A stretch of DNA of 64,000 nt, from assembly GCA_015039365.1 (NCBI GenBank), contig WION01000024.1:62001-126000 (forward strand), written 5' to 3'. A program made the translations under genes and the position numbers. This document shows positions 2,493 to 33,556 of this stretch, piece after piece. The stretch comes from Amanita rubescens (lineage: Eukaryota > Basidiomycota > Agaricomycetes > Agaricales > Amanitaceae). Numbering within the stretch: the first letter of the stretch is position 1; each line of letters begins with the position of its first letter. The notes under the pieces are model-generated. The model was given only the letters and a program-made list of their open reading frames with translations. It was not told the DNA's origin and ran no database searches.

Positions 2493-2561
2493 AATCGATA
2501 AAGGTTGTGCTGGGGGATGAGTGAGCGTCCGAGGTTCTTAAATCTTTCAGCGGTCTGGGCG

Positions 2562-2857
2562 TGTAAAGTGGATAGGTTGATAGAGGTTGATAGCTTGTAT
2601 ATACTCGAACGCACAGTGCACAGGACCAAATGTATTGGGTGAGCCGTGCTAGTGTGTGCGTATGACGAAGTAATAGTGGGCTTCTTATGTAATGTGTCAA
2701 CGCGTGAATATAAAGTCACGCGTGACTTGATCTATATACAATATATCTATGGGAGTTGTTCCACAACTCCCCTGGTCTTCAGGCTTGGAGATCCTCTGGA
2801 TCTCCATATCCATGAATATCCATCTGGGTTCCAGGATGCTCTTGTAGCTTCCTTACA
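2562..2857 (-). repeat. L1 left LTR (3' LTR in minus orientation)
   Basis: This 296-bp repeat has TGTAAAG and CTTACA ends. It differs from the right copy at about 15 positions, mostly in one 20-bp cluster near 2690-2705. A TATA-like segment lies near the middle. The adjoining GTGGGGGAGAG on the minus strand is a typical plus-strand primer tract. Confidence 0.7.
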
Positions 2858-5433
2858 CTCTCCCCCACAAGATCATGTAGTGATCTTCAATTGAAAATGC
2901 AGATGTGAACGAAAATTGGGCTTGAGGACATTGATTCATCTCGAGAAAATTCCCCAAGGTGATTGTATAGCCCTCACATCCTCCCCCACTCGCCGCAAGG
3001 TACGGGGCGAAGGTAGAACTGAAGGGAGAAGAGATTTCCGTGCAAAATTCAATTCGAGGCACCATTTTCCGTGGAGAGACAGTAAATCGTCGCAGGAATT
3101 TATTTCTTCTATCCTCGGAGGTGTAGAGTAATGATAGGTGTTTGTTCCTTCCGAAAGCGAACATTTCCGATGCGGCGTGAGCGAGAACCAGTCTTCTGAA
3201 CGTTTTGACGAGGGTGCGCGTCGAAATTCGACGTTCCTTCCATGTTTGGAAGTTCGTGACGGGGTGTGACCGACCAGAATTCGAGGGAGGCAGCAGGCTG
3301 CTCTTGGGAGGCAGAAGTGGAGCTCCACATGCGTAGAGGTGCACGCAGTGATGGACTTCGCATATGGTGATTTTGAAGTCCAGAGATTGAAGTGGTGGGT
3401 CGATAAGAACGTTTGAAGCTGAACGCGTCGGTGTCGGTGTGACTTCCGAATGAGGAAGGTTGCCTGGGCCTTCATGGTCGTAGCGTGCTGTACTTCAGCA
3501 CAAGGTTGAGGGGGTGTTGGGAGCTTCCCAACGTGTACTTCTGGCAGCATCCAGCCGCCTGAGCGAGGTCCAAGCCTCGCTAGAATTGGACGTGACGAGC
3601 GCTCAGCGCGCGTCGGGATTTCGACGAGCCTTCCAGATTTGGAAGGTCAGTGGTCATGTGACATGCGACTTCCGCGTCAAGTCTGTCACTTATCGCTAGG
3701 GGCGTCCAGCGATAACGATGAGAAGGGGAGCTCCTATCGACTGGAGCTCATCAAACGATACGGTGACGGCTACAAGAGCCATCTGGATCCCTTCTGCGCG
3801 GCGGAGAAGCGAGGAGAATGAGAGAGAAGAGGAGGAAAGGTGGGAGTACTAGCCGGATGAGAACGGTTGCGGGAACGAGGTGAATTCCTCGTCTATTTTC
3901 CTTTATTTCTTCTCGCGCAACTGACCATACTGATTGCCAGGCTGGGAGCTTGACCTCAGCATGATAGCGCATTGCAGATAGGAAGAAACGCATGAGATAG
4001 CGCAGGTGCGATCTCGGAGGCTACTCGATTGCGAGTAGGTGGATGGTTTCTCCCCCACAGACTTGTTCTGGGGAGAATGGGAGATAGTCTTGATACCAGG
4101 TAAGTACCCGGCATCGTTCTTGTTGAAACGGCTGACACGCGTTTATGTTTAGGCGCGTATTTGACTTTACAGCGAGGATCGGATTCCTCGTGTGTTCCAG
4201 CAGGAGGGGAACGGCGCAGGAATAGCCCGTGGGCTATTCTCGATGGACAGTGAGGTGCGGGAGCGCTGAGAATGGGCGAGGCAGGACGAGGACGAGGACT
4301 ACAGACAGGGTATGTTCTTCCTCATCTATTCCTTCCGTTTCTCGCTAACCGTTTCTCCTAGCCACGGTGTTCGATTTGCTGGACTCACAAGAGTCTTTGA
4401 CGCGCTCTGGAGAGTTCATTGAAACTCTCTAACGCTATGGAAATCAGAACGAATCGACTATGACTCGTCGCGAGTCTCTTCCCCACAAAAGAAAAAAAAG
4501 GATTCCGGTGGAGATGGTTGATGGGTTTCTCGGGATAGTTTCCCGAGGGTACGAGTGTATCAAGTAAGCCCTACTACGCTCGTAATATTGTTTTGTTGAC
4601 GACATCGAAGTAGCGTCATCTTTATCCACCATCCGGGCAGAGGTGTTACTGGGATTCTCGGGATAGTTTCCCGAGGATAGTATAAGTGTAATAGGTAAGG
4701 CCTACTACGCTCGTAATGTTGCGTTGTTGACGACGTTGATATAGCGTCGTCTAATATCCATCATCCGGGAGCCTGAAGCGGCCGACGAGATTGATAGGGA
4801 GGTGGGAGCGGGATATCTTTGAGACTAGGTAAGTCTCGTCTTTCCAGCTTTTCGTCCTCGTATTGACAACTCAATGACGTTGGTGTGGATTCTCAGGTAG
4901 ACGGATTAGACGGGAGGACTAATACTGGTCCTCAAGAGTGTTTCCAAGGCCTGGACGAGATGTCGGCCTCGAGGTTAGGACTTTGCGTCGACCTCTCGTT
5001 TGTCAACCATGTGTAAATCGAGCAATAAGGGGTCACGAGTGCAGGAGAAAGGGATAGAGACTACCAGCCGGTAAGTCTTCTTCCTTTCGTTTTCCTGTAC
5101 TTTTATTAACTGCGGGACATGCTAGATACGGTATTCCCGAGTACGCGAATGTCCAATGAACGGTTGGAAGACCTAATGGTGAGTCTTCCGTATGTTTTCA
5201 GAGAGTTTGATTTAACTCTCGGTTGATTTATTATTTTTAAAGCGAATCGCGTTTGACTCGCCGAGTCCTTTCCCCTTCAAATGAAGAGGGGTAGATTAAG
5301 TGTTCGGAGATGAGTCTCCGTTGTCGTAATGATTAAGTTGATTAATTAGGTGAGTTGTATGTCAACTCGGATTTAGTAGTTTCTGATAGATATCTTCATA
5401 ATTTACAGATTTACAAGTTTGAAGGACTCGGAA
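2858..5433 (+). other. L1 interior, non-coding part: hairpins and intron-like cassettes
   Basis: No frame is open for any distance. Perfect inverted repeats recur every 50-150 nt, for example 4529-4535/4541-4547, 4657-4663/4669-4675, 4729-4735/4745-4751, 5166-5172/5183-5189 and 5201-5207/5214-5220. Plus-strand segments with donor, branch-point and acceptor signals of fungal introns occur at 4100-4152, 4310-4361, 4564-4613, 4695-4744, 5071-5125 and 5350-5408. A module of about 128 bp is tandemly duplicated (about 4515-4642 and 4643-4770). A diverged duplication links about 3211-3265 with 3608-3662. Function is unknown. Confidence 0.55.
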
Positions 5434-8400
5434 TCACGGTGAAGCCAGCAACGGACGAGACGAACGAGGATATTGACAACGCGGAGATTCCGCGCGACGC
5501 TCGTGGGTCAGGGAGTGACCCGACTCAGTCGTTGTTTCGGCCTCAGGATCGGGATCATTTCCGAGTACGAAATTCATTGATTTGGGCGGCATCGTTTCCG
5601 CCCAGTGTAGATGTGAGTGATGTTCACTCATAAAGTTTGTTTTATTGACGACACTATAGTTTTGTCGTCTGTAGTTAACCGCTACGTCGGGCGGTTTATG
5701 ACGGGTGCGCCAAATACGTTTGACGCACGTGGAATCAGGAGTTTCCGCCCACCACGAAGGTTCGGGCGGAATCGAGGGCGGCGCGTTCGCTGTGGCCTTG
5801 GCATCGACATAGGCATAAGAAGGAGGGGCTGGAGTGGGAGTCTTGTCATCCTCGTGGATGATTGTGTACTCCGTCTCTTCAGCCTCGCAATTGTGGATTG
5901 CACGGAAGGTAATGACACTGAGGACCAGCGTCATTCTCAGCAACCTGCCAAGACTACAGCCAAGGTCGAAAGCGATGGCTTGGCTAGCGCGTTTGGGTAT
6001 AGGTAGTGTGAGCACTACCACGGGTTGAGGTGAGTACGCAGCGGCACTCGGGTTGAATGACTGGCTGACGACATCACAGGGATATCGTCGGGATTGAGAG
6101 GGCAAGTCATTCGACTGTGTTGAAGATCCAACCAGTTGGCGCAAAGCGCTACTCAACTGGGTCGTTGGAAGGGACAGTAGAGTACTGGTGGACGTCGATG
6201 AGAAGAACTTGAACGACGTGGGGACCGCGCTTGATGCAGGCGAGTGCGGGTTGATGCTCACTCCGACTGTTCCACTGACGACATCTAGCACTTTCTGTCG
6301 GGATGAATCGAGACAGTCGGGCCCAACATTCAACCGCATAAAAGGTTGGTCCAGCTGAAGCACGATGCTTTTCAGCTGGAGGATCGGATAAGCCTGCACG
6401 GGATAGACAAGCATTGAAGGGTAGGGTGACGAGACAGCCACCCGGGGACTAGGTGAGCGCAGGTTAACACTCCTTTCCTTGTTATTGATGGCGTATGGGT
6501 CTCGCAGCCTCGTTTCTTCCTCGTTGGACAGCACCAAGTCTTGAGGGGTGTCTTCAACGCGTTCCTCAACGTTGACGGACTCTAGGAACCTTTCCGCACG
6601 ACTTTCCGAGACCTCAACATGGGAGATTCCCAATGTAGACTCAGGATGGTGCGAGACCGGGTTTGAACAAGTGGTAGAGAGCCCAATGGCTCTCGGGACG
6701 TAGAGCTGCTGAGGAGCAGCTTTGGGCTGAACCGGAGAGGATTCGGGTTCTTCGGGTTCAAGCCTTGGTGAGCATGAGTCCACGCTCGCCTCTGTTTCTT
6801 TTCTAATAACAGACAGGGCTTGTCGTAGGGATGTGAACTCAGCTTCCGACTTATCGGGTGGACCCTTAGAAGCATGACGAACATTTCCGTCGTAATCAAG
6901 TGAGCGTCTGCGTTTGCGTTCTTGAACGTACGCTGCAGCGCTCGCTAAATGCCTTCCTTCTGAAACTTCAGAAGGATAGTTGTTGGGGTTAGACTGCCTT
7001 CGAACAGTCTGGGAGTTCCGTGAGTATACCTTACTCACTGTTGTTCTGTCATTGACAACATTTAGGCCATGTTGTCTAGATACCGCCTCAATAGGTGGCC
7101 TGTCCTCGTCTAGTGGGTGACGAGGAGCCTCTACTTGGACGGAAGAGGTAGCGGGAGCAGGGACGGATAGCGTGGACGCTACCGAGGCATTAGGTGAGGA
7201 CATTTCCTCACTTATGTGCTGTATATTAACGACGGTGGTGTCATAGATCCGCCGTTTCTCCCCCAATTCGATTGAAAGTAAAGAAGATTGGACCCGTATG
7301 TTAGAAGGTCCAAGAATTGACGTAGAGCGTTCGATTACGCTCTCTTTTGACGTTTCGAGAGGCGCAGGTGCGTTCCTCTCGACTTCAACAGTTCTTTTGA
7401 GCTGTTGCGGCTTTCTCGCAGAGGGAGCGAGTAAATTCTTACCAGCCCGCACGTTTAAGGCTGGCTCAGGGACTCTAGAACGGGCTTCGTTCTTTTGGTG
7501 AGTGACTTTACTCACTGCCGGTTTCTTGTTCGTAACGTGAACCTCACGTCGTTTAGAAACGTGGAGAGGTGAACAGTTCAGCTTAGCGTGGAGCTGTGAA
7601 GGGGGGGTGGTCGGTGTAGAGGAGACCGGCGAAGGTTTTGGCACCAGGGAGGTTTCCTTGGCAGAAGGTACGTGACTCAAGGAGCTTGTTAGCTTCCTTG
7701 CACTAACGATCTTTCCGATTCGAAGCTTCGATTCGGACGCAGTAACTACAACCTTCGGGATCCGACGAACAGAGTCGTTGAGAATGGAGGAGCATTGAGT
7801 TGTACGCTCCTGAGTATATACCACAGCTTTCGCAGGTGGCCTTCCTTCCGAAGTATCGGAAGGAGCTGTCAAGAGTTCGGATCGAGCAGAAGGTGTGGAC
7901 GAGGTGACGGAAGTAGGGATTGGCAGTATAAGGACTGCCACGTCATCAGGTGAGGAGGTTTCCTCACTTCCTCGTCGTGTACTGACAATGCTATAATTAC
8001 ATTGTCCCGGTGCCACCTCAATAGGTGGTATAACCTTGGGAGACCGACGAGGAGCAGTATCGCGAGTAGGAGGGACAGGTGAGGAGACTTCCTCATCCTT
8101 GTTACCGCGCGCACTAACGACATTTAGATTGCGTCGTATTGGTACCACCTCAAATGGTGGTGTAAGCTCGTCTGAAGGTGCATGAGCAGGTGTGGCTGGC
8201 AATGCGGGAACGGGAGAGGTGACAGAAGCGGGGACTGGTAACATGGAGTCTTCCGGGACTGGTGAGGATACTTCCTCACTTTCGACGTTCTGTATACTAA
8301 CGACGGTATCGCAGACTTGCCGTTTCTCCCCCATTTCACCAGAAAATGACGAAATATAGCCGGGCGTGCTCACAAATCCAAGAGCATCGGGCAAGTGCGC

Positions 8401-9780
8401 GGGGATGTGCTCATTTGAGATTTCGGGAAGCAAGGGTGAGCTTCCCTTCGCTTCTATAGTTTGTTCGAGTCGAATTGACTCTCGCGCGGCAGGTGGTTCA
8501 CCAAACCGCGGGTTTCCGGCTTGGTGAATAGTCTTCGGACGAGTTTCGTCCGTTAAATGAGTAGTTTTACTCACTATTGACCTCGCATTGACGATACGAG
8601 GCTCGCATCGTTTAGGAAGCCAGAAGGGTGCAAGAATCAGCTCATCATTGAGCTGAATAGGAGGGTTGGCCCATATAGAGGAGACGGATGAGGGTTTAGA
8701 CAGCGAGGAGGCTGTCTCGGACAAAGGTGCGTAATCGGCTGCGCTCTCTCGTTCCTTCGTGCTAACTGTCTTATTTCCAATTTGAAACTTCAATTTGGAT
8801 CCAACACGGGGGCTAGGAGCACAACGCGCGACGGCGGCAACAACTCGAGACTTTGACGAAGATCCGACAACTCCAGTGCTTTTGTCCGGAAGCTTCCGGA
8901 CAAGTACGGAGGGCTCCAACACAGGCGGTGGTATACGCTTATCATGCGTATTGGGTTTCCGAGACAGCGTATGAGAGACGGACGATTCCGTCTTCTTTGA
9001 TGATTCCGAAGGAAGCTTCCTTCGTGAATCTAAGCCACGAGCTATTGCTGGCTCGTTGGACTTTTTCGGTGAACTCCTCTGGAGCTCACGAGATGTGAGA
9101 GCGGAGTCCGGCTTCAACGAGCTCAGACGCTCTTGGGTACGAGTCACTTGAACTCATCTCGGGGTGTTTCGAGACTCAAGGGTCGAGTCTCCTGTTCCAC
9201 TAGCATTGTTAAGTACTCGCAAGGAATCTTCCCTGCGAGTCGCTAGTTGCGTTTCACTCACGGGCTTACGGGGTTCCAGCCAATCAGACTTAGGTTGACT
9301 CCGGGTTGGAGTCTGGCCAAGGCGACACGTTTCGATAACGGGAGTCACTGTGCTTTCCCCAGGTGACTTAGAGGTTCTCAGAACCTCCCGTTTCACTCGA
9401 GGAGCATGAGTGGCCTTAAACCGTGTAGCGTCGCGTGAAACTGACTGAGTGCTTGAGTTGTGGGACGAGCCGAACGTATGCTCGTCCGTGTGAGTTATTA
9501 ACTCAGAGGTACTGACGCTCGTTGCGCGTCGTGATGAGTGTGAGGCAGTGGGAGCCTCGTTCTTCACTTTCGTCGAAGGTTTTTCGACGTGTTGAGTTGA
9601 GTTGATGCCCGGGATGGACTTCCCGGATGTCTGTGTGTGTTCATATGTTGAGCCTATCAATCGGCTCAGCCTGAATCCGACGGACGGTCTCGCTAAGAGC
9701 GGATTCGGGTATGGCAGGTGTCTGGAGCCACGAAGTGCTCCAGGTGAGTTGAGCTTCGTGTCACGGAGCTCCTTGGGCAT
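5434..9780 (-). pseudogene. L1 long minus-strand frame, 1448 codons with one in-frame TGA
   Basis: The frame runs from ATG 9780 to the stop at 5434 and is broken only by a TGA at 9154-9156. An ancestral CGA is the simplest source of that stop. The product is not recognised. It is Ser/Pro/Thr/Val-rich and hydrophilic, with no zinc knuckle, DTG, YxDD or DDE motif. It contains diverged internal repeats of about 350 residues, for instance SKPSSVSS and PKPSPVSS followed by GEMGEKRQ and IELGEKRR, and a recurring VVS-R...EE-SSP motif. The DNA is full of short perfect palindromes, so the openness may reflect DNA structure rather than selection for protein. It may be a diverged Gag-like protein, a LARD antisense ORF, or non-coding. 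Confidence 0.35.
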
Positions 9781-9908
9781 TGGCTATGCCCGGGATTCGT
9801 GTTTGGGTGTTGGTAGACTCTTCTAGGACTTGTAGATCGATTTGTGTACTTGTCTTCGAGAATACCAGAGATTTTCAACTCCAAAATGAAAGTTGACAAT
9901 GGCACGGC

Positions 9909-9931
9909 TGCACAACGACAGTGGTTGTGCA
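9909..9931. promoter_or_regulatory. Perfect 8-bp stem-loop next to the L1 right LTR
   Basis: TGCACAAC and GTTGTGCA (9909-9916, 9924-9931) pair perfectly around a 7-nt loop, six bases inside the LTR. In minus orientation this is the position of a primer-binding site. No tRNA-complementary PBS was recognised. Confidence 0.4.
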
Positions 9932-9937
9932 AAAAAG

Positions 9938-10231
9938 TGTAAAGTGGATAGGTTGATAGAGGTTGATAGCTTGTAAATACTCGAACGCACAGTGCACAGG
10001 ACCAAATGTATTGGGTGAGCCGTGCTAGTGTGTGCGTAGACGAAGTAATAGTTGGCTGATCATGTAAGGTGTCGACGCGTGAATATAAAGTCACGCGTGA
10101 CTTGATCTATATACAATATATCTATGGGAGTTGTTCCACAACTCCCTGGTCTTCAGGCTTGGAGATCCTCTGAATCTCCATATCCATGAATATTCATATG
10201 GGCTCCAGGATGCTCTTGTAGCCTCCTTACA
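9938..10231 (-). repeat. L1 right LTR (5' LTR in minus orientation)
   Basis: This 294-bp repeat is the partner of 2562-2857, with the same TGTAAAG and CTTACA ends. The short stretch to the copia element (10232-10328) holds nothing recognisable. Confidence 0.7.
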
Positions 10232-10328
10232 CCCGCGTAAGCGTGAAAAATGAGGGAAAGAAGGAAATCAACTTGAGTGCCACCCCGAAACTGCCACTCG
10301 TGCGGCTGCCAGCAACCGCTCTAGCCTC

Positions 10329-10938
10329 TGACGAAGTTGGGTTCTCCTCATCATGGAGTCCAACGCAGCAGCACAGCGCATGTGACTGAGTAAGGAACCG
10401 ACTTACTGTGAAGGTAGGAGTGTGTGAGGGACTTTATAGGAGCTAGAGGCTCAACTATAAGATGTGGAGATGAGAGTAAGAAGTTAGGAGGATACGACGA
10501 ATTGCCATCCCTCCTTATATATTGTCTGAGATACAAATAAGTGTAAACTATGCTATCTACGGACCTTATCCTATTGGATGATAAGGTGTGTATTGTATTA
10601 CACAGCTATTGTCATATTGACTCATCATATGATCTATTCCTAGTCATAATGATTGACAGAAATTATAGGGTTCTGTCATATCTGACATATTGCTGTATGA
10701 CAGATATTATAGAGTTCATTCTTGACAGATTGCTGTAGAATGACGATATATGATTCTTAAGGAATCCGAATATCTAGTAACTATGATGCAAGCGTATTTA
10801 TATCTACTTAATCTATACTAATGGAGATAGATAAGATCATACTATCTTATCTTAGGATAAGATAAGAAAATCTGATAAGATAAGAAAATATCTACGATAT
10901 ATTATCATTATAATATATGGTTTTATATATTTTCATCA
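10329..10938 (-). repeat. Copia 3' LTR
   Basis: This 610-bp repeat is near-identical to 21975-22607 and lacks an indel of about 28 bp present in the other copy (near 22275-22302). Confidence 0.93.
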
Positions 10939-10950: not shown

Positions 10951-13319
10951 AAGTACATAGGTACTTAACCTAATGCTGCTTCTTTAATTCTTTTTCATAA
11001 TATTGTACAAGTTCTTGAAAATAGCTGGTAGCATCAACATCACGAATGCGTTTAAGCATTCTGTCATGGTGATCATCTGCCTTGGATTGGCGGAATTCTT
11101 CAAGCCATTTCTTATCAACTTGTGACATATTATTTTGGTGTCTTTTTAAGAATATTTGGGAATCATCAAAGACAATTCCCATTCTTTGTCTGAACTGAAC
11201 TACTTTATCATAACATAAATTTTTTGTCATGATATCTGCTACTTGTTCATTAGTTGGAATGTATGTAAGTCGAACTTTGTTATCTTCAACACATTCTCTA
11301 ATGTAATGATAGCGTATATCTATATGTTTACTTCTATGTTCTTGAGCCGGATTGGATGCAAGAAACATAGCTCCTTGATTGTCACAGCAAAGATCAATTG
11401 TTTTGATATCAAATGAAAATTCTTTCATTAATGATTCAATCCAAGCAATCTGACGTGAACAATCAGACATACACATATATTCAGCTTCAGTAGAGGAAAG
11501 TGCGACCGTCTTTTGTTTTCGTGAAACCCATGATATGGCTCCTCCAGCTAATAGCATAATATATCCGGTAACAGATTTTCTTGACATTTTATCTGCTGCC
11601 CAGTCTGCATCAGCAAAGGCGAGAAATCCTAATTTTGAAATTCCATTAAAAACTATTTTAGCTTTATCAGTTGTATTGACATGGCGTATAATATAAAGGG
11701 CCATGTGAATGTGAATTTCACTAGGGTTTGCACAGAATTGAGACATTAATATTACTTGATAAGTAATATCTGGTCTAGTTCCTAATGCAAGATATAACAA
11801 TGATCCTATTATTTGTTGAAATAAAGATATTGTTTCAGGTGAAGCTTGTTTATCATTAGGTACTGGTACATAACCAGCAGGGAGTGCTGTACGAGTTGGC
11901 TTTGCGTTTTCTTGACCAAAACGCTTAACAATTTTCTTGGCATAATCTTCTTGGTCAATAATAAGGGTTCTTCCTTCCTTATTGTAATTGACTCTCATAC
12001 CAAGATATTCTTTTACTTTACCAAGATCTGAACATTCCCAAAGTTTCATAAAAGCATCTTTAGCCTTTTTAACTTCTAAGGAATTTGATCCCATGAAAAG
12101 TATATCATCTACATATAGTACTATAACTATAATGGATTTATTATCTTTTCTGATGTAAATACCAGAATCAGATAAACAGCGATCAAATCCTAAACTTTTG
12201 AAGGATTTGTCTGCTTGTTTATTCCAAGCCCATGAGGCTTGTTTAAGGCCATAAATAGCCTTTTTAAGTCTATATACCTTCTTTTCTTGATTTTTGATTA
12301 CATAGCCTTCAGGTTGTGTCATATATACATCCGCTTCAAGATCTCCGTAAAGGAAGGCAGTCTTGACATCGAGTGCTTCTATATCCCAGTTTTCTAGCAC
12401 TGCAATGGCGAACAAAAGGCGAATGGTCTCATATCGAGCCACTGGTGAAAATGTTTCATTGTAATCAATCCCAGGTCTTTGCGAAAATCCTTTGGCTACT
12501 AAGCGAGCCTTTTTTCTGCCGTCGGATTTTAGTACAAACACCCATCGACATCTGATGGCTGTTCTACCAGGAGGAAGATCTGCTAATTCCCATATATTCC
12601 TAGCATTTAATGATTTAATCTCTTCATCCATAGAAACTTTCCATTTCTCATAGTTTGAAGGATTATTGATGCACATTTTACTAATGTCTCTATAGTCATA
12701 TGGAACAGTGTCATCATCTTTTGCATATATTGCCTGAGCAAATAAATGATGGACAAGTTCTGTACCATTTTCTTTAACTATTTTTTGTGTCCAAGTATTC
12801 ATTGCCTTTTGGTGATATTCTTTTAAGATGCGTATACTTGTAGCAGTATGTGTGATTTGAAATCTTAGAATATCTTCGACTTCTTTATCAGAAGAGGAAG
12901 ACTTTTGTTCTTCTAAATCTTTCAATAAATCAAACATAACATCTTTTTTATCTGAGATTTCTTTCTCTATCTCAAGAATAGGTTTATCACCATATATGTT
13001 ATCAGGTTGAATAACTGGAACCTTGAGACAATCAGATCGACGAGGTGGAATGTCAGGATCTCTGACAGTTCTAGTTCGACGAGTTTTTGGTCTAGGAGGT
13101 GGAGAAGGAGTTTTGTTCCTTCTTGATCCTATATAAGCATCTTCAAGATCCAAGTGAGGCTTGTCAATGGGTTGATCTGATTCAACACCCCTTGATTTGG
13201 TATCCTCATCTTTTTCTGATTTAACTGATTTAAAGGATTCTTTATCAGAACCATCATGATCAGAAGGATCATCATTATCGCTATTGTAAGGTCCAGAAGA
13301 CTTATTTTCTGGAAATGTC

Positions 13320-15591
13320 CAACACTTTACCCTCCCCCACGTGTCCTTGTGGACTCCTTGTGGACTCCCGGACTCCTCAGGACTCCTCAGGACTCCCTGT
13401 AGACTCCTGATAAATTGACATAAAATGCCAGGAGTGGACAAGGACTCCTTGTGGACTCCTTGTTCACTCCCTGTTCACTCCTCATTGACTGCAAAAAAGC
13501 AAAAAATGCCAGGAGTCATCCCACAAGGAGTGGACCAGGAGTCCCTGTGGAGTCCTGCTCACTCCTGGTTCAAAGCAAAAAAGTAGTAAGTAAAATTGCA
13601 AGGACTGGACAGGAGTCCCTGTGGAGTCCTGCTCACTCCCTGCTCACTTGTCATTACTGTAACAATGGCAACAGAAATCTGTTGCACTACAATGCTACAT
13701 AACAGTGAATCTAAATAACTTAGTACAAACCATTTAAAAACATCATCTGTGCCAATCAATACCAACACCATCACCACCACTATCATCATCACCATCCACC
13801 TGTGGCCCACTTTTTTCCTGCTCTGATTGTTTGTTGATGTAATATGCAGGAACCAGTTAAAATTGCTGCTAATCATCCTTTTCAGTATTTGCTCATAACC
13901 ACCTAGTAAGGCATTCAATGTTCACATGCCTGTGTATTGAAGGCACACATGTAACTGAGTCATATCTTCATTGAAACTTAATCCATCAGGATTCCTACTC
14001 ATTCCCAGCCATTCCTATTGCATCCTATGTAAGTAAGACTGACATCACCAGTACTTTACACTCATGTGCAATTTCATGCTGCTTTCCAAATTTCAGGTGG
14101 GCATGCATGTTGTTTGGCAATGTTTATACTTGCAATAAAATCCTGAAAATTCATATGATCCAGGTCATATAGGACTTATTGTAAGACCAAATAATGCTGA
14201 GTACTTGAAATGTTTGCAAAAGACCTTTTCAGATGTGAGTGTGAGGAAATTGTAAAGTCTGAAAATAATCTTGAAAATGTCCCATGTGATCAAGGACATG
14301 CAAGAATTATGATGCCAAACTAAATAAGCTAAAATGTGAATGCAAAAAGTCTGTTTGTCTTTTGGTTTTGCCACTCCATGTGTGACCACCTGCAAAGTCA
14401 ATTTAGGAGGGGTGTCTGGTGATGATCAAGTTTGGTCAGTTTTAGGAAGTTGGGGTTGCTGGTGGCTATGAGTGACTGGAAGTGCTGGAAGTCAGTTGCA
14501 GTGACTTCAATGTGCAATGGTTTGGAGTAGCATCAGAAAACATGCCAAAAATCTGACATCTGATGGTGTCTGATTCCTTCCTGATCATCTTTGTTATGTG
14601 CATGGTGTTTGTACATGGAAATTGCTGCCATCTTAAAGTTGTGTTACAAAACATCACAGGGCTCAGCTCCGTTATAAGATGGAGCATCATTTCATTCAGC
14701 CTTGGAACTGGTTGTTTGATTGTCTGACAATCAGATGTCATCAGTTAATATCAGACAACAGACAACCAGTGTTTCAGACACTGTCAGACCATCACCATCA
14801 GACAACCAGTGTTCCAGCACAAGTCAGGCAATCAGAAAATCAGATCAGGTTCAAAAGACTGGTGTTCAAAACAGTACTTTGCAAGTATCTTGAGTTTGGC
14901 AGCATTTGGCACTGCAATTCTTGCACAGATGTGATCACATGATTTTTTGGGATTTTTGAGAATTTTTTTGATTTTTTTGATTTTTTTCAAAGCTATGTTT
15001 GAAAATGTATTTTGCAAATATCTCATGTTTGACTTTATTTGGCATTATGATTGTTGCATATTCTGAATCACAAAAGCTAGGCGCATCTTTTTTGTCACAG
15101 TCACATATTACATAATGTCACACTTCTATAAAAGGAAATTTTAATTTTGTTATATTTTATCTTATCTTATCTAGGCCATCATATTACTTAAGCTGCCTAT
15201 CATCTATCTATCTATCTAATCTTATCTCCACTACCCCCCCTTTTCCCGAGGGGGTGCTGGGGGATATGTGCCAGATGCCCCCTCCTTATATACCTGTGGG
15301 CCTGCGCACAGACCAACTGGTCATGTCACATGACCACATAAACAGGAATGAAACAAGGAGTCCTTACACTCCTTGTGGACTCCTCATACAGGGAGTCCAG
15401 AGGAGTCCCGGGAGTCTACCAGGAGTCTACCAGGAGTCCCAGCTCACTCCCGGTACATTTTGGCTGGGATGAGGGGTCTTCCAGGGAGGTGGGAGTCCCT
15501 CTGGAGTCCCAGGAATTCCCGGGAATTCCCGGGAGTGAGCCAGGAGTCCTCAGGAGTCTACAAGGAACGCGTGGGGGAAGGTAAAGACCTC
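13320..15591 (-). mobile_element. K1 copy 1: non-autonomous CxC6-derived DNA transposon (2272 bp)
   Basis: Inserted in copia pol with exact 8-bp TSDs GAAATGTC (13312-13319 and 15592-15599). The ends are inverted: CTTTACCCTCCCCCACG at the left and the reverse complement of CTTTACCTTCCCCCACG at the right, followed by arrays of GGACTCC/GGAGTCC motifs on both sides. It has no complete gene. A decayed CxC6 3' end lies at about 13838-13950. Near-identical copies are at 29013-31280 and 44607-46878. The right arm also has a (TCTA)n run and T-rich DNA. Confidence 0.93.
13838..13950 (-). pseudogene. CxC6 transposase 3'-end relic in K1 copy 1
   Basis: The minus strand reads ACE, then after a 1-nt deletion LNALLGGYEQILKRM and NFNWFLH. 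The intact gene of E reads ACEQLNAWLGGFDHIIRRM and NFNWFLH at 57379-57465. DNA similarity extends upstream through the segment encoding YNTQ. The reading frame is otherwise lost. This ties K1 to an E-like parent. Confidence 0.8.
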
Positions 15592-18500
15592 GAAATGTCT
15601 TCCTTTTATCAATCTCATCTGAATCGATAAATGGGTTAAGATCTTCTTCTTCCTGAATAGGACTGAGTTTATCAAGATTCTTGGTTGCTATACTTTTAGT
15701 TTTGCTCTCTCTAGGGAATTTGGATTCATTGAATTGTGCTTGGGTGGATATGACGAGTTTGTTATCATGTGTCATGAAGCGGTATGCTTTTGCATTCGGT
15801 TCATATCCAATAAATGTCATCTCTTCTGATTTTGGAGACAACTTGTTTTTGCGCAATTCTTTTGGGATAAAGACCCAAGCAGTGCATCCAAATACTTTGA
15901 AGTATGAAACATCAGGTTTATCCATTGTTAGATTTTGTACTGGTGTAGACCAGTCTGTACGTCTAAGTGGAGTACGATTGTAAATATGTACGGAGGTTTC
16001 AATCGCAAAATTCCACCAAGACTGTGGACATGAAGCATGTAGACGCATTGCTTCACTTTTTTCTCTAAGTGTTCTATTAATCCTTTCTGCACGACCATTT
16101 TGTTGATGTATGTGTGGTGTGTTAAGTTGATGTGTAATACCATTGGTTTTTAAGTATTCTTCAAACGTCTTTGATGTAAACTCCCCCCCTCGATCGGAAC
16201 GGAGTGAAACGATTGAAGTAGAATACATATTTTGAATATAAGTATACCAATGTTTAAAAGAGGTAAAAGCATCTGACTTCTTTTGAAGTAAAAGTGTCCA
16301 TACATGAGATGTATAATCGTCTAACAAGACCATTATATATTTATGTTTATTATATGATGGAACAGGCATTTCCATCAAATCGGTATGAACTAGTTCAAAT
16401 GGTTTTGAAGCTCTTTTATCTGTATCAGGAAAGCTTTGTGAAACAGCTTTACCTTTAACACATCCTTTACAAGGATCATTAGTGGTGGGTAAGGGTAACC
16501 TGGGTGGGAAACCCTTAAGAGATTTATTGCCCATTTTAATTATTTGTTTAGAAGGATGTCCTAGACGTTGATGCCAAATTTCCCAATTGATCACATTATG
16601 CGTCGGGACTAGTAAGCTCCAAGCTTTTGGCTTATAAATATCGCCATTAATCCACATTAATGTGTCATCGCCTAAGGCGGGTGTTCCTTCGATGTAAGGA
16701 ACATCAGGAGAATGTTTGAGACTAAAAATAATTTTCTTGTTATCTTGTCTTGCAATTAATCCTTGTTTGCACAAGGTTCCATTGCTTATTAATCTAAGTA
16801 TTGCGCTTGGCATGTAGAGAACAGGATGTAATCGAATTTGGTTCACTGTGCCATTTGATAGTTGATGTGAAAGTATAACAGTACCTTCACCTAATATTTG
16901 TGATTGTGAATCAGCGGTTATTGCCATACGTGGAGTATCATACTCTGTATAGTCTACAAAATCACTTTTATTGAAAGTAAAGTGATCTGATGCACCGGAA
17001 TCACACATCCAAATACAATCATTTCTGAATGCGCTAAAGCATTTATAACAGTTGCATGATGATGTTTTCTTACAAAGGGTAAGCTCAGGATCGAACATTT
17101 TGCCCAAGTTTATACTTGGAAAAGCAGAATAACCATTATTTATAGAATTTTCATCTATATAAGATAAAGGACTAATAGATCCTGGGGATCTATCGTCTAC
17201 AATTGGAAATTCTATATAACTTAAACTATTACGATGAGGAAATTCTTCAGAACTTGGTGAAAATTCTATTAAATCGGCTTCAGAACTTGTTATAAGTTCT
17301 GTTGAGTCGACTAAGGTATCTTCTTTATCAGAAAATCCTTGAGAATCACTGTTTTCGAAATTAATTTGAATTTCGTCAGAAGAATTACTATTACCTTCAT
17401 CGTTTGTGAGGTGTACTACCTCATCGTTAAGGAGTGCATTGATCATGTCAATTACCCCTATAATAGTATTTTTGTTAGTTCGATCATATAAAGCCTGTTG
17501 TTTACAATATTTGGCATGAGCCTCTAATTGTTTCACATACCCTTCGTAATCATATTGGAAATCTTGGTCATTTCCTAATGATATTTGATCATCATCATCT
17601 TCAACTGTTGCGCGTGCCTTTCCTTTGTCCTTAGGAAGGTTGACAATTGGAAGTGTATTAACATCCAAGTCATTATTAATATCTGACACTTGTCCGTTGT
17701 CAGATTGAGGTGGAGTAGGCCAAACTACTTTCACCCTTGTACCTTTGTAAGTCCATTTTGGTTTGGACTCACTTTCTGTATCAGCGTAATTAGGATCACC
17801 TAATTCTTGATTCCAAGAATTTTCATATTCGTTAGGTAAATTTTCATTATCCTGAATAGGATAATAAGTCCTAACATTTGGTGGTTCTATACGAGATTTT
17901 AAAGGTAAAGCTATGGCAGGTGATGCCATTGAAGAACCAGTGGCAGCTTGTGCCATCGCAGCTCTTTTAGTCATTTTTTGCTTTAACTTTGTTTCTTTAT
18001 TACGCTCATTGTTAGGCCCTTTCTTTTGATTAGGCATTTGGCCATGCCATTGTGCGTGAGCCTGAGGTACAGGTGGTTGAGGTTGACGAGTTTTTGGCCG
18101 GAAGTTTGGTTTAAAACCTCCACGACCACGTCCGCGACCTCTATTACCGGTATATGGCCTATAGGATCCTGATGAGGATCCTCCTGTATTAGAACTATTA
18201 CCATAGTTTTGTCCTTGCCATTTAGGGCGAGGATGTCCCTGGTTTAAATTAGTTCTAGCCATATTAGCAGTAATGGTTTTGCTGCTGAAAGATTTCTTTC
18301 TGCGCCATTCTTCTACTATTCTAGGTATTATTTTAGCCATTGAAATATCTTTTGGTTCAATGCTAGCTAATAATACCGATGACATGTTATCCCAATGCTT
18401 TCCTAGAGCATTTAAGAGTAACATACATTGCATGTCATCTGGGATAGTTATTTTATGCGTAGAAAGTTTACTAAGTGCATCCTGAAATTTTTGGATTGCA

Positions 18501-21974: not shown

Positions 21975-22607
21975 TGACGAAGTTGGGTTCTCCTCATCAT
22001 GGAGTCCAACGCAGCAGCGCAGCGCATGTGACTGAGTAAGGAACCGACTTACTGTGAAGGTAGGAGTGTGTGAGGGACTTTATAGGAGCTAGAGGCTCAA
22101 CTATAAGATGTGGAGATGAGAGTAAGAAGTTAGGAGGATACGATGAATTGTCCCTCCTTATATATTGTCTGAGATACAAATAAGTGTAAACTATGCTATC
22201 TACGGACCTTATCCTATTGGATGATAAGGTGTGTATTGTATTACACAGCTATCGTCATATTGACTCATCATATGACAATATGTGAGTCATAACGTATCAT
22301 ATGATCTATTCCTAGTCATAATGATTGACAGAAATTATAGGGTTCTGTCATATCTGACATATTGCTGTATGACAGATATTATAGAGTTCATTCTTGACAG
22401 ATTGCTGTAGAATGACGATATATGATTCTTAAGGAATCATATCTAGTAACTATGACGCAAGCGTATTTATATCTACTTAATCTATACTAATGGAGATAGA
22501 TAAGATCATACTATCTTATCTTAGGATAAGATAAGATAATCTGATAAGATAAGAAAATATCTACGATATATTATCATTATAATATATGGTTTTATATATT
22601 TTCATCA
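21975..22607 (-). repeat. Copia 5' LTR
   Basis: This 633-bp repeat is the partner of 10329-10938, followed by the TSD GCCTC at 22608-22612. Confidence 0.93.
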
Positions 22608-22612
22608 GCCTC

Positions 22613-23464
22613 AACGTACCCCCATGCCCACGGTAACACCTAGACGAACTGCCGACCACCGTGTCCACGGTGTTGGCTGTTAAATATAGAATTATATTTA
22701 TAGAATGATTAACTACTGATTGACTACAATCAATGTTACTCATATCGCTCACGTCATCCTTTATGTATGACATAGAGATGACATCATAATGACTTCATTA
22801 TGATATCATAGTGACATCATGATAGACTCATGATCGCACCTTATGGTGTGCTTAGCACGCCATATCTTCCCATCTATACTATACGCTTACACATATGTAG
22901 ACACATATTTGTTCTCTCTTAGTATATAAACCTGTCCTATATCGTAGAATAGGACAATCCATTCTCTTCCTCTTACTATCACTACTACGCCGAAGGGTAG
23001 TGCTAAGATCATATCGCAATAGGTAAGCTATTGCACCTGCTCATGCTGTGGACATGCTCTCGCGTGCACCTGTCTTCTTCGTCATTGGCCGCTACCACTG
23101 TCACTGTTGCTACTTGTTTTCATTCTGACTTGCGGGTGCGCCACCGCTGTACCTGTTTCGATTGTGGTTATGGCCATAGCACGGAGTGAATGCCTATGCC
23201 TATGCTGCAAGTGCAGCAAAACATCGGTTGCTGTAAGACTGGAAGTTGGCGTAAAGAAAGAAGTGGATACTTACAGGGCAATTTTTCTAACGAGTCCCCA
23301 CAACCGACCCATGGGTCACTAGACAAACAAGTTGTTCGGTTTGCCTGCGTTCAACAGTAAGCTGGTGATTTTCTGAGCTACAACTTCGCCTGGGAGCTCA
23401 ATGCGGTGTTTTACAACAGGGTCTGGCCTTTCTCTTTATTTCATCCGGCAGATCAGGATGGCCT
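22613..23464. other. Unassigned sequence between copia and A1
   Basis: AT-rich at its left, with AGTATATAAACC near 22919 resembling a TATA box and a TGTTGGCTGTTAAATA start near 22672 that could be an LTR fragment without partner. No gene model is supported. It flanks foldback element A1. Confidence 0.3.
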
Positions 23465-23472
23465 CGGAAAAA

Positions 23473-26164
23473 CACCTGATGAGCCCAATAAAAGCCTCTA
23501 ATTAGAGGTGGACGGACCCCACTCGTCCATGCCTAATTAGAGGCCAAAAGTGAATTAATGGGCTGAGCTGGATAATTGGGCAGAATAAATAAAAGTTTTC
23601 GAAGTTTAACAAGTCCATTTTCCCACACCCAGTCCAATTACCATTTCTGGAAGGTGTGGAGAGTTGTTTGTGCATGTTATGACATATGGTATCATCACAA
23701 TTTTGGAACAAGGGAATGATTACCTTATTTTGTAAGATAGCTGAATTCCAAATGAGGTAAGCAAGTTAGGATACCATATTTGGAAAGTTGTGAGGGTGTT
23801 GTTTGTACATGTTTGTACATGTTATGACATAATTCTTGCACCATCTTGATCACATGATATTTCAGGATTTTTCAAGATTTTTTGGCAGCCTTTCAATTTT
23901 TCAACACAAATCAATATCTTGTGTTTGGCCCTGTTTGGGAATGTAATTCTTGCACCACCATGATCACACAATTTTTCAAGATTTTTCAAGATTTTTTTGG
24001 CAGCCTCCAATTTTTCAACACAAAGCGTTTAAAACAGTATTTTGCAAATATCTTGAGTTTGGCATTGTTTGGCATGTTCATTTCCACACCACTCTGATCA
24101 CACGATTTTTCTGCATTTTTCATAATTTTTTCAATTTTATTCCCACAGTCACAGTACTCTTGGCAAATGGTAGCATTACAAATGAGACTACAAAGACTAC
24201 ATTAAAAAGTGCGGATTTTTCAGGGTCAAATTAATGTGCACTTTAGGATCCTTTGGTGGGTTTCCAAAAATGGAAATAGCGCCCTTCGGACTTGCCATTT
24301 TGGGAAATATCTGCTCACTGTTGGTGGTGATGAGCAACAAGAAATTGCAATAACTCCCTTAATACCAGGTATTTTTGTGGCGCTTTTTTTGGAACATATT
24401 CCTTACATGTATATGCACCTATTCACCATGTTAGAATGCAAAAAATGCAAGTGGTTTCTGTCAGAATGCAACATGTCTTGCTCACTGTTGACAACAGTGA
24501 GGAGCAACAAATGACAATATCTCCATTAATACTGGTTATTTCTGTGGCGCTTTTTTTGGTATGTCCCCATTAGGCACATAGGAAGGCACTTGCAATGTTA
24601 GAATGCAAATACTATGTACCAATCATGCCACAAATAAAATTGGTGTGCTCACTGTCTGCCACAATGAGCAGCCATATCTCCACCAAAACAAGATCTTTCT
24701 GTGGCACTTCTTTTGATTTGGGATCACACATAACAAAGATAAACATTGGGAGGGTCACAACAGAGGATCCCTAGGCAAGATCAAGTGGAATGTCCCATTT
24801 TTCCTGACATGTCAACTTGTCAGCCACTCTTTCTGTATCATGTTCAGACATTTATCATGAAACTGAAAGTTACACATTAATCACCTGGGCAATCTCCTTC
24901 GAGACACCCTGAATGACACTCTGTTATCATAAGAAGTCCAAATCCAAAAAAGCGCCACAGAAAGATCTTGTTTTGGTGGAGATATGCCTGCTCATCATGG
25001 CAGAGAGTGAGCACACCAATTTTATTTGTGGCTCATTGGTACATACTATTTGCATTCTAACATTCCAAATGCCTTCCTATATGCCTAATAAGGACATACC
25101 AAAAAAGCGCCACAGAAATAACCAGTATTAATGGAGATATTGTCATTTGTTGCTCCTCACTGTTGTCAACAGTGAGCAAGACATGTTGCATTCTGACAGA
25201 AACCACTTGCATTTTTTGCATTCTAACATGGTGAATAGGTGCATATACATGTAAGGAATATGTTCCAAAAAAAGCGCCACAAAAATACCTGGTATTAAGG
25301 GAGTTATTGCAATTTCTTGTTGCTCATCACCACCAACAGTGAGCAGATATTTCCCAAAATGGCAAGTCCGAAGGGCGCTATTTCCATCTTTGGAAACCCG
25401 CCAAAGGATCCTAAAGTGCACATTAATTTGACCCTGAAAAATCCGCACTTTTTAATGTAGTCTTTGTAGTCTCATTTGTAATGCTACCATTTGCCAAGAG
25501 TACTGTGACTGTGGGAATAAAATTGAAAAAATTGTGAAAAATGCAGAAAAATCGTGTGATCAGAGTGGTGTGGAAATGAACATGCCAAACAATGCCAAAC
25601 TCAAGATATTTGCAAAATACTGTTTTAAACGCTTTGTGTTGAAAAATTGAAGGCTGCCAAAAAAATCTTGAAAAATCCTGAAAAATCATGTGATCATGGT
25701 GGTGCAAGAATTACATTCCCAAACAGGGCCAAACACAAGATATTTGCAAAATACATGCTTGCCTGTCACAACCCTCTTGTCAAAATCTGTAAAAAAATTA
25801 TCTCTTGTAATTGTTTGTGTCATAACATGTACAAACAACACCCTCACAACTTTCCAAATATGGTATCCTAACTTGCTTACCTTATTTGGAATTCAGCTGT
25901 CTTACAAAATAAGGTAATCATTCCCTTGTTCCAAAATTGTGATGATACCCTATGTCATAACATGCACAAACAACTCTCCACACCTTCCAGAAATGGTAAT
26001 TGGACTGGGTGTGGGAAAATGGACTTGTTAAACTTCGAAAACTTTTATTTATTCTGCCCAATTATCCAGCTCAGCCTATTAATTCACTTTCAGCCTCTAA
26101 TTAGGCATGGACGAGGGGGGTCCGCCCACCTCTAATTAGAGACTTTAATTGGGCTCATCAGGTG
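23473..26164. mobile_element. A1: foldback DNA transposon, about 1.2-kb arms
   Basis: Exact 8-bp TSDs CGGAAAAA flank it (23465-23472, 26165-26172). The ends read CACCTGATGAGCCCAAT inward on both sides. The two halves are inverted copies: about 23473-24722 pairs with about 24941-26164 around a loop of about 218 nt. Similarity between arms is very high, so even spurious ORFs recur on opposite strands (24209-24514 and 25143-25448). Subterminal CTAATTAG palindromes are shared with B and A2. It has no gene of its own. Transcripts would fold into a long duplex. Confidence 0.9.
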
Positions 26165-26172
26165 CGGAAAAA

Positions 26173-31900: not shown

Positions 31901-33556
31901 CAAGCCCAATTCTCGAACTGGCGCAGGAGGCTCCACGCGTCAATCTTGAGGACTTCGGTAAAAAAAGACTCGGTATTTGCCGTTGCAATCCATCCTGGAA
32001 TACCAGAGTCCCGGACGTCGCCCCTGCTTGCAAACAAAAATACGTGCGCGCCCGTCCGCGACGCTAAGTTGTCGGCCTATGATGAACGTTAGTAAGAACG
32101 ATACACCGATAAATGCAAACTTACCTCCTGTGATAAACGTTGGATCGTGAATCGCATGTCCTGCGCAGCAGAGATGTTTGACGCTCTAGCCCCCTTTTTC
32201 TTAAGGTCGCGGTGGTCCTCCAGCTCCTGCAGTAGCTCGCTCTTTTCGTCCGCAGTCAATTCTTGCATTATTTCTTCAATGTTGATCATGTTTTGGACTT
32301 CGAGCAGCTTCAACCGATTTCCCTCTTCCCGGCCTGCGGACAGATGTGAGAATAGTACAAAATCCAGCAAAAGAGCTTACCTTCATTGAGTTCTTTTGCT
32401 TTCTTGTGGAGGATGGCGTTCTTAAGATTTGGTTTGCGCGTTGATTTCAGTGTTGATGACGAACATAACAAGACGCGGATGTAATCTTCTTTTTTCCTGA
32501 ATTTCTCTGCCAGTTCCTCAACCAACTTGTCTCGGAGTACGTGGAATGCCTTGACCTCAGCCAGTAAGGCTTCTCCATTTTCTTTTATCTGCGCGCTTCT
32601 CATTTTTATGGTCTGGCGTTCTGCGTGAGTCCTGGGGCGATAGACGCGTGACCGAATTGGCTGTACAACGGCTGTTGGTAAGCGTTTGGCCCACGTGTCT
32701 AACGACTCGGCGGCCGTGGGACCATCTTCTCCCTCACTGGCAGCTGTTCGCAATAGCTCGCGCTGATGATTGAGTCGAACCATATACTCTTTGACCCGCT
32801 CGTCGTCAACAGGATGCTCGTCAGCAGCAGGAGGCTCGTCTTCATCATGATTCTCGTCAGCAGCAGGATCGCCATCCTTGAATACAATAACATAACCATT
32901 AGCTTTATGAGTACGTGAAATCACTTACAGAATCATTTCCCAACGGAGTCTGACGTCTCGTTCCAGCGTTTCCCACTGGCCTTTGGGGATCCGTGGAAGG
33001 GCGAGCCTGGGTACTGAAATGCAATATGTCAGTATTGATATTTCGGTTGGACTACTTGTTTAACTTACATTCGATTCTGACGGCGCGCGCTCGTGGGCGC
33101 ATTAGATGATGTTCCCGTACTGTTCGACGACATCTGGAATCCGGAAGATCCAACTTCCTGTCGTCTTCGGTGATTTGGGTATAATATTGGTTCCGGGGGA
33201 TTATTCTCTTCATATACAGAATTACGGTTGACGATATTATAGTTTTTAGGTTGCTGTAAATTTGAAGGAGCGTGTGGTCGTGTGTGAGATGCCGAAGGAG
33301 TAATGACTGGCGGTTTAGTAGCGTGCGGGGAGTTCAACGAACTAGGTGGCGTATTCAGTGGACCGAAGGTTCGTCGGCCTCCTGTAATTGTAGCCCTTGC
33401 TGAGATAGGGATATAGCCTCTTCCTCTTCCTATACCCGTGTCCAATGACGATGCCGTGCAGCGGCGGTGGTGCGTCAAGGACGAGGAAGCCTTTCCGTGG
33501 CTTCGAGAAGATGGATTCCCTGGGCGAGCATTCTCGTCCTCGCAGGAATTGCTCAT
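28915..33556 (-). CDS. Conserved KDZ-element gene of unknown function (7 exons, 687 aa), last exon split by K1
   Basis: Exons by splice signals: 33556-33069, 33013-32929, 32876-32381, 32333-32125, 32076-31887, 31836-31768, and 31717-31281 continuing at 29004-28915 once K1 and one TSD are removed. The total is 2064 nt, a whole number of codons. No family is recognised. The N-terminus is Ser/Arg-rich, followed by an acidic stretch, a helical Lys/Glu-rich middle (LKKKGARASN, ITADEK-like), a block with RVKLVGWPENIKF and CHWVRI, a basic nuclear-localisation-like stretch (GRKRKQRSDKGKPRKKR) and an acidic tail. The homologue at 49827-51739 shares the order and four intron positions. It is divergent from the hybrid-binding gene, with about 150 bp between starts. 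In this copy K1 breaks the last exon and adds premature termination. Confidence 0.85.
29013..31280 (-). mobile_element. K1 copy 2 (2268 bp)
   Basis: Exact 8-bp TSDs GCCCGTCT (29005-29012, 31281-31288). It is inserted in the last exon of the unknown gene of B. Ends and GGACTCC/GGAGTCC arrays are the same as in copy 1. Differences from copies 1 and 3 are few (single substitutions and 1-4 bp indels). Confidence 0.93.
29532..29643 (-). pseudogene. CxC6 3'-end relic in K1 copy 2
   Basis: This is the same decayed LNALLGGYEQILKRM...NFNWFLH segment as in copy 1. An extra G just downstream (near 29519) shifts the meaningless continuation of the frame. Confidence 0.78.

What the first reader, a model, noticed from the sequence alone, without database searches (positions are those of the whole stretch)
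2858..9937. L1 interior is a ladder of short perfect inverted repeats
Along about 7 kb, stems of 5-8 bp with 3-15 nt loops follow one another every few tens of bases: 4529-4535/4541-4547, 4657-4663/4669-4675, 4729-4735/4745-4751, 5166-5172/5183-5189, 5505-5510/5516-5521, 5584-5589/5598-5603, 6003-6008/6013-6018, 6677-6683/6688-6694, 7356-7362/7375-7381, 7386-7391/7402-7407, 7442-7447/7459-7464. Stem sequences differ from one another, so this is not one amplified repeat. Structure appears conserved rather than sequence. No element class I know has this. It might serve RNA folding or packaging, silencing, or be a product of a templated mutation process.
Basis: partly seen in the sequence, partly recalled or inferred. 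Interest (0 to 1): 0.85.

Follow-up and report, generated by a model that had tools for sequence, protein, structure and literature searches.

The report
Hairpin-studded mushroom retrotransposon
A selfish DNA element in a mushroom genome carries about a hundred short self-pairing stretches along its whole length, and the pairing stretches change more slowly between copies than their neighbours, so the folding itself may matter to the element.

Summary
Observation confirmed. All 11 listed stems exist; 2858-9937 holds 104 perfect inverted repeats (stem >=6, loop 3-20) against 26±5 in shuffles, with no comparable excess of mirror or direct repeats. 'L1' is a recently mobile LTR retroelement of, by protein match, Amanita rubescens, without detected pol, with a minus-strand ORF of about 1,550 codons. 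Codon shuffling leaves 15 of 58 hairpins in the window ORF, so the protein does not explain them. All 17 sequences compared carry 10-13 hairpins per kb. With ascertainment removed, stems diverge at 0.585 of the rate of their surroundings (95% 0.47-0.70 over 27 blocks); loops do not slow. Hairpins turn over but tend to keep their places at 52-58% DNA identity. Templated conversion alone does not fit; a lower mutation rate in stems is not excluded. Transitions giving G·T or A·C are equally common, so RNA- and DNA-level action cannot be separated. Best reading: a LARD-like element with a transcript structured throughout. New variant of a known kind.

The parts
2562..2857 (-). LTR (3' LTR on the sense, minus strand); TGTAAAG...TTACA on the plus strand
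   Evidence: Pair with 9938-10231, 95.3% identical; in the 7 of 16 fetched copies in which two LTRs were found, the LTRs are 99.0-100% identical and flanked by 5-bp duplications
9938..10231 (-). LTR (5' LTR on the sense strand); no target duplication in this copy (GGGCG left, CCCGC right)
2858..2868 (-). Polypurine tract GTGGGGGAGAG abutting the 3' LTR on the minus strand
   Evidence: Read directly; identical in the 8 copies printed
9909..9931 (.). Hairpin next to the 5' LTR, where a primer-binding site would be expected; no tRNA-type PBS recognised by eye
5434..9147 (-). Long ORF, 1,237 codons here; corresponds to most of a frame of 1,517-1,587 codons (stop to stop) that is open in 6 of 16 fetched copies
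   Evidence: dN/dS 0.50-0.61 in non-stem codons over 21 pairs of 7 sequences
9154..9780 (-). Upstream ORF of 208 aa, separate in this copy; matches the N-terminal part of the single frame of L009
2858..5433 (-). 3' part without detected pol; hairpins continue (27 non-overlapping)
   Evidence: Stem 0.105 vs rest 0.192 divergence between copies (only partly free of ascertainment); no Pfam match in the two minus-strand ORFs over 100 aa scanned
4529..4547 (.).
4657..4675 (.).
4729..4751 (.). Hairpin GACGACG...CGTCGTC
5166..5189 (.). Hairpin
5505..5521 (.). Hairpin
5583..5604 (.). Hairpin; in the distant relative L055 a hairpin with a partly different stem has its centre at the same place
6002..6019 (.). 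Hairpin with paired changes in several copies
6350..6380 (.). Longest perfect stem (10 bp)
6677..6694 (.). Hairpin
7020..7038 (.). Hairpin; innermost pair AU in 5, GC in 3, GU in 2 of 10 distinct rows
7054..7076 (.). Hairpin GACAACAT...ATGTTGTC; GACGACGT...ACGTCGTC in L055
7324..7343 (.). Hairpin with two pairs changed on both sides in L009, L010, L018
7355..7382 (.).
7386..7407 (.). Hairpin
7442..7464 (.). Hairpin

Best explanation
L1 is a recently mobile, pol-less (non-autonomous) LTR retroelement, most likely transcribed from the minus strand. Shown: it carries about a hundred short perfect hairpins from one LTR to the other, across coding and non-coding parts; they come from synonymous choices rather than from the protein; stems evolve at about 0.6 of the rate of their surroundings while density is held and individual stems turn over. 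Inferred: weak purifying selection on pairing, acting on the single-stranded transcript, which folds locally into a chain of hairpins joined by A- and C-rich linkers. Such a chain would compact the genomic RNA for packaging by a partner's Gag and/or make it a poor target for RNAi and for sense-antisense duplexes. I rate pairing selection at about 0.7, RNA as the level at about 0.45-0.5, and any one role at 0.25 or less.
For: Excess 104 vs 26±5, specific to inverted repeats. Same protein and codon usage give 15.2±3.4 where 58 are seen; 1.6 where 22 are seen in the strong class. Density 10.1-13.4 per kb in all 17 sequences compared and 62 vs 15.4 in a relative at 52-58% DNA identity. Hairpins defined in an outgroup copy, divergence measured between two locally closer copies: stem/rest 0.585 (0.47-0.70 over 27 blocks); loop divergence 0.085 vs rest 0.079; the same design gives 0.94 for direct and 1.42 for mirror repeats. 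Transversions look more reduced (0.39) than transitions (0.64), but the intervals overlap and 6.5% of bootstraps reverse the order. Hairpin centres coincide with those of L055 in 13 of 32 (shifted mean 2.5, max 8), and likewise 15 of 33, 14 of 36 and 8 of 19 from three other copies. Sense-strand folding z is -1.6 to -3.0 and lower than the plus strand's in 6 of 6 samples from related copies; three other stretches lie near or above 0, the copia stretch at -1.2 to -1.35. Unpaired sense bases in the window copy: A 0.27, C 0.30, G 0.20, T 0.23.
Against: No strand preference in broken pairs: plus-strand G·T 410 vs A·C 393 cells in young copies, 292 vs 278 in the outgroup design, and sense G·U is rarer than A·C at depth. 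RNA pairing should favour G·U on one strand. The sense/plus z difference may come from base composition. Recent private changes: stems 39/7,255 vs rest 211/33,091 (p=0.36), but one copy (L010) carries 20 of the 39, and without it stems have half the rate (19/6,036 vs 176/28,179, p=0.0025), so lower mutation in stems is not excluded. At 52-58% identity only 3-4 of 24-30 hairpins stay fully paired in the same columns, and per-pair states there are close to a neutral null. Doubles restoring pairing are not significantly in excess in the outgroup design (2.2, 95% 0.47-3.5). No expression, small-RNA or probing data were seen.
Confidence: 0.45

Rival explanations
1. DNA-level selection: the hairpins act in double-stranded DNA (cruciforms) or in single-stranded cDNA during replication, so both strands count.
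For: G·T and A·C changes are equally frequent in stems, and transversions look rarer; this symmetry is what pairing on both strands predicts.
Against: Stems of 6-8 bp extrude poorly in duplex DNA (recalled). Sense-strand composition and folding are asymmetric. I know of no LTR-element step that needs a hundred DNA hairpins.
Confidence: 0.22
2. A mutational cause without benefit to the element: template switching makes and repairs the hairpins, or stems simply mutate less than unpaired bases during replication or reverse transcription.
For: Template switching that makes and mends hairpins is described (PMC8794818; abstract, start of the introduction and Discussion read). Some changes look like it: a four-base one-arm change in L020 and a three-base stretch completing a stem in L014 that L009 lacks. 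Strand symmetry fits. Without copy L010, recent private changes are halved in stems (19/6,036 vs 176/28,179), as lower mutation there would predict.
Against: One-arm multi-base differences are not in excess at hairpins (79/5,921 vs 1,403/29,546). 12 of 23 inferred births need one substitution. Simulated conversion leaves 'same' at 0.85-0.86 whatever its rate, while 0.883 is observed at a mean divergence of about 0.16, and fast conversion gives far too many doubles. With L010 private changes are nearly equal (0.0054 vs 0.0064), and in young copies 0.0044 vs 0.0049. Another repeated element and gypsy ORFs in the window lack the ladder.
Confidence: 0.23
3. By-product: the hairpins follow from the repetitive, disordered protein or from base composition.
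For: Peptide motifs such as EEVSSP and R(R/Q)...VV recur and lie on hairpins (read).
Against: Synonymous shuffles lose about three quarters of the hairpins in 4 of 5 L1 ORFs and 62% in L055; hairpins are as dense in the non-coding 3' part; mirror and direct repeats are not comparably enriched.
Confidence: 0.03
4. Chance inverted repeats conserved by shared ancestry only.
For: Much of the apparent stem conservation in window-defined comparisons is ascertainment, and two transitions always restore a pair.
Against: The excess over shuffles and over mirror and direct repeats, and the outgroup-defined test.
Confidence: 0.03

Closest known systems
LARDs (large retrotransposon derivatives of grasses; recalled; only a search listing with starts of abstracts of later papers seen)
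   Same: LTR element without pol, long internal domain, conserved internal RNA secondary structure (recalled), recently mobile
   Different: L1 encodes one long ORF under selection (dN/dS about 0.57), has short LTRs (~296 bp), lives in a basidiomycete, and its structure is a dense chain of short perfect hairpins with turnover of stems
Genome-scale ordered RNA structure (GORS) of positive-strand RNA viruses (search listing and starts of abstracts only)
   Same: Local structure throughout, across coding sequence, below shuffled energy
   Different: Retroelement, not an RNA virus; perfect short hairpins; no G·U preference among broken pairs
Template-switch-made hairpins (Monttinen and Loytynoja 2022, PMC8794818)
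   Same: Perfect short stems and paired changes
   Different: Here stems show reduced divergence and few multi-base one-arm changes

Membership tests
LTR retrotransposon | Direct LTRs with TG..CA ends and target-site duplication | tested here: met
   5-bp duplications in 7 of 7 fetched copies (of 16) in which two LTRs were found, besides the window copy, which has none
LTR retrotransposon | Polypurine tract and primer-binding site | tested here: inconclusive
   GTGGGGGAGAG abuts the 3' LTR on the minus strand; no tRNA-type PBS recognised by eye. A shorter purine run (AAAAAAG) abuts the other LTR on the plus strand
LTR retrotransposon | gag-pol domains | tested here: not met
   No significant Pfam match for the L1 ORFs and relatives scanned: P0001, P0002, P0005, P0008, P0009, P0010, P0012, P0021 and two short ORFs; hence non-autonomous
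LARD-like non-autonomous element | Long internal domain without pol | tested here: met
   Internal length 7,080-7,611 bp in 8 copies
LARD-like non-autonomous element | Internal domain non-coding | tested here: not met
   Frame of 1,517-1,587 codons open in 6 of 16 copies, dN/dS 0.50-0.61
LARD-like non-autonomous element | Conserved RNA secondary structure | tested here: inconclusive
   Stems evolve slowly; RNA as the level not shown
GORS | Folding energy below shuffled sequence along the whole genome | tested here: met
   Mean z -1.64 to -3.02 on the sense strand in 6 samples of 120-nt windows taken every 150 nt from four sequences
GORS | Positive-strand RNA virus genome | tested here: not met
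   It is an integrated LTR element
Known structured RNA family | Match to an Rfam family | tested here: not met
   0 matches at gathering threshold in 2500-10400

The most novel reading that the evidence does not exclude
A retroelement whose main conserved trait is neither protein nor sequence but the presence of a short perfect hairpin every few tens of bases, on both strands alike. The individual stems are replaced over time while the density and roughly the places are held. This would be a structural code that shields or packages both sense and antisense strands, perhaps shared by unrelated retroelements of one mushroom genome.
Probability: 0.25. Interest if true: 0.8.

Novelty: new variant of a known kind. 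Interest (0 to 1): 0.6.

Why it matters
If pairing is what is selected, this gives a natural system in which structural selection can be read apart from protein and sequence selection across a whole 7-kb transcript. It bears on how non-autonomous retroelements get packaged or avoid silencing, and on whether hairpins in genomes are made by selection or by mutation.

Tried and rejected
Plus-strand introns: GTGAGT, GTAAGT and CTAAC/CTGAC motifs look like splice signals on the plus strand, but those I looked at are the antisense of recurring peptides of the minus ORF (read directly); dropped.

Window-defined stem conservation (stem 0.059, loop 0.151, rest 0.141; 76 of 94 double changes Watson-Crick) first looked decisive. 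A simulation showed that choosing stems perfect in the reference about halves their expected divergence; also two transitions always re-pair, so the slid controls are not a fair null. I no longer rest the case or 48 except for the G·U/A·C ratio. and the regional part are only partly free of this.

Recent private mutations first looked equal in stems and elsewhere; rechecking showed that copy L010 carries 20 of the 39 stem changes and that without it stems have half the rate. The bootstrap used 257 crude groups that split homologous hairpins; one search repeats it with 27 blocks of 250 bp.

Pair counting on one 490-column piece (11 rows, 10 distinct; of the 14 fetched copies with a full segment I used 10 and left out L013, L015, L017 and L024, the last three near-identical to L016 and L013 near-identical to L019 over the columns they share): paired cells 97.3% vs 36-47% slid and covariation score above all 500 shuffles, but pairs with a change on both sides were not significant (75/500) and further pair types not at all (420/500). 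This piece is window-defined and so biased as above.

Copia coding region: hairpin excess (40 vs 18.5) but stems hardly conserved against a 70% relative (0.259 vs 0.321) and not against two closer ones (0.049 vs 0.037; 0.071 vs 0.081) (L057 was fetched but not tallied). Copia LTR: stems vary less (0.109 vs 0.22-0.23 variants per site, 24 distinct sequences) but window-defined and without paired changes.

One-mismatch hairpins by type: too few (G·T 1, A·C 6, other 12 over six related copies). Structure prediction was made for a 737-aa relative, P0020, not for the window protein: only a helical N-terminal stretch is confident, mean pLDDT 40; no PDB match with E<=0.001. Literature: the searches listed no description of such an element, by titles and starts of abstracts; in PMC4122921 I saw term counts and passages only (hairpin 0, secondary structure 0).
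Full report
What the element is. The window lies in a 75.7-Mb genome of 786 contigs. The species is inferred: the protein search names relatives of the L1 ORF as Amanita rubescens, one of them 98% identical on a contig of 397,712 bases, the length of the window's own contig. L1 has LTRs at 2562-2857 and 9938-10231. Besides the window copy, two LTRs were found in 7 of 16 fetched copies; there they are 99.0-100% identical and flanked by 5-bp duplications (ATGAA, ATCTA, CATAT, GATGG, TTTTT, CTCCC, TTTCA). The window copy has 95.3% identical LTRs and no duplication, so it may be a recombinant. Copies are mosaics of segments from about 65% to 98% identity to the window. The sense strand is most likely the minus strand: a GTGGGGGAGAG tract abuts that LTR and a frame of 1,517-1,587 codons is open in 6 of 16 copies. 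In the window this frame is in two pieces, 5434-9147 and 9154-9780. Non-stem dN/dS is 0.50-0.61 in 21 of 21 pairs of 7 sequences, two of them partial. No gag or pol family was found in the ORFs scanned, so it is taken as non-autonomous.

The ladder is real. 104 inverted repeats against 26.0±5.1 in shuffles; 38 against 1.8 for stem >=7 and loop <=8, with loops of 4 nt commonest. Mirror repeats (31 vs 27.2±2.6) are not enriched and direct repeats (36 vs 23.8±5.2) only slightly. Permuting synonymous codons, which keeps the protein and codon usage, leaves 15.2±3.4 of 58 in the window ORF, and 17-19 of 50-74 in four relatives (12 shuffles each). Hairpin spacing is irregular, median 63 nt. The ladder runs through coding and non-coding parts.

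It is kept. All 17 sequences compared, the window copy and four near-identical copies included, have 10.1-13.4 hairpins per kb. A relative with 52-58% DNA identity and 34-41% protein identity to the family in the aligned ORF has 62 against 15.4 in shuffles.

How it is kept. Comparisons that define stems in a sequence they also test are biased, which I found by simulation. I therefore defined hairpins in an outgroup copy and measured divergence between two locally closer copies. Stems diverge 0.046, surroundings 0.0786, loops 0.085. The ratio is 0.585, 0.47-0.70 in a bootstrap over 27 blocks of 250 bp. The same design on direct and mirror repeats gives 0.94 and 1.42. Transitions are reduced to 0.64 and transversions to 0.39, but the intervals overlap and 6.5% of bootstraps reverse the order. 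This pattern fits removal of changes that break pairing. Compensatory doubles are above independence but not significantly in this set (2.2, 0.47-3.5). In window-based comparisons doubles that restore pairing are 76 of 6,186 cells without a gap, 1.2%, against 0.5% in the neutral simulation at slightly higher divergence.

Does mutation spare the stems? Private changes of decayed copies give 0.0054 in stems and 0.0064 elsewhere (p=0.36). But one copy, L010, carries 20 of the 39 stem changes; without it the rates are 0.0031 and 0.0062 (p=0.0025). Young copies give 0.0044 and 0.0049. So lower mutation in stems is neither shown nor excluded.

Turnover. Against the distant relative, only 3-4 of 24-30 hairpins are fully paired in the same columns, and per-pair states are near a neutral null simulated at 0.43 divergence (0.45-0.50 observed). 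Yet 13 of 32 hairpin centres coincide within 3 nt with a hairpin, against a shifted mean of 2.5 and maximum of 8; of the 13 printed, I count about 5 with the same core stem and about 8 with a stem that differs in part or whole. Of 23 inferred births, 12 need a single substitution; three have 3 or 4 changes in one arm. 70 losses were inferred by the mirror-image rule, 51 by one substitution. So hairpins are lost and regained, mostly by point changes.

Templated mutation. One-arm multi-base differences are not in excess at hairpins, and arm-to-arm conversion in simulation leaves the share of changed pairs unchanged. A small contribution is not excluded.

RNA or DNA. For RNA: the sense strand folds below shuffled energy more than the plus strand in 6 of 6 samples from four related sequences, with Wilcoxon p from below 0.001 to 0.06 in the five tested, and its unpaired bases are rich in A and C, which do not pair with each other. 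Against RNA: stem changes to G·T and to A·C on the plus strand are equally common (410 vs 393; 292 vs 278), and sense G·U is the rarer at depth. The level of action stays open; I prefer RNA because LTR elements replicate through RNA and because of the sense-strand bias.

Wider setting. Copia ORFs show a weaker excess (40 vs 18.5 and 30 vs 14.3) that was little or not conserved in the piece tested. Three gypsy ORFs show little (4 vs 3.1, 9 vs 5.2, 9 vs 6.6), a CxC5 ORF 13 vs 6.8±2.5, and two others none (3 vs 5.5, 6 vs 12.2). A repeated element at 32000-38600 lacks the ladder. So this is a property of some retroelements of this genome, not of all repeats.

Noticed in passing
window 10355-10938 and 22001-22607: Two LTR-like copies of a copia-type element, 93% identical, rich in hairpins up to 12 bp; window-defined stems vary about half as much as the rest over 24 distinct sequences.
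   Followed up: partly
window 22675-23084: Another repeated stretch, rich in A+T hairpins by eye, shared with contigs C146 and C300; the kilobase 22001-23000, which also holds the copia LTR, has 33 inverted repeats against 7.2 expected.
   Followed up: no
window 32000-38600: A repeated element with copies 100% identical over up to 6.6 kb on several contigs and no hairpin excess; probably a very recent transposon.
   Followed up: no
window 24000-26170 and 39410-41170: A large repeat that matches itself in both orientations, i.e. a long palindromic element, present in many copies.
   Followed up: no
window 13316-15592, 29004-31284, 44603-46879: A 2.3-kb element occurs three times in the window at 99-100% identity.
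   Followed up: no
window 9200-9918: Copies fall into two types at the 5' end of the ORF: the window, L009, L010, L020 and L021 share one module; L011, L014-L018 and L024 lack it, and L016 and L018 show another that encodes a conserved N-terminal domain, predicted helical, also found in distant relatives.
   Followed up: partly
L020 hairpin AGTACGGAA-ggc-TTCCGTACT: A derived hairpin with four changes in one arm and one in the other, a candidate templated mutation.
   Followed up: partly
L010: This copy carries an unusual share of private changes in stems (20 of 1,219 sites vs 35 of 4,912 elsewhere); unexplained.
   Followed up: no
L1 family, mirror repeats: Arms of mirror repeats diverge faster than their surroundings (ratio 1.42 over 1,981 sites compared); unexplained and perhaps noise.
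   Followed up: no
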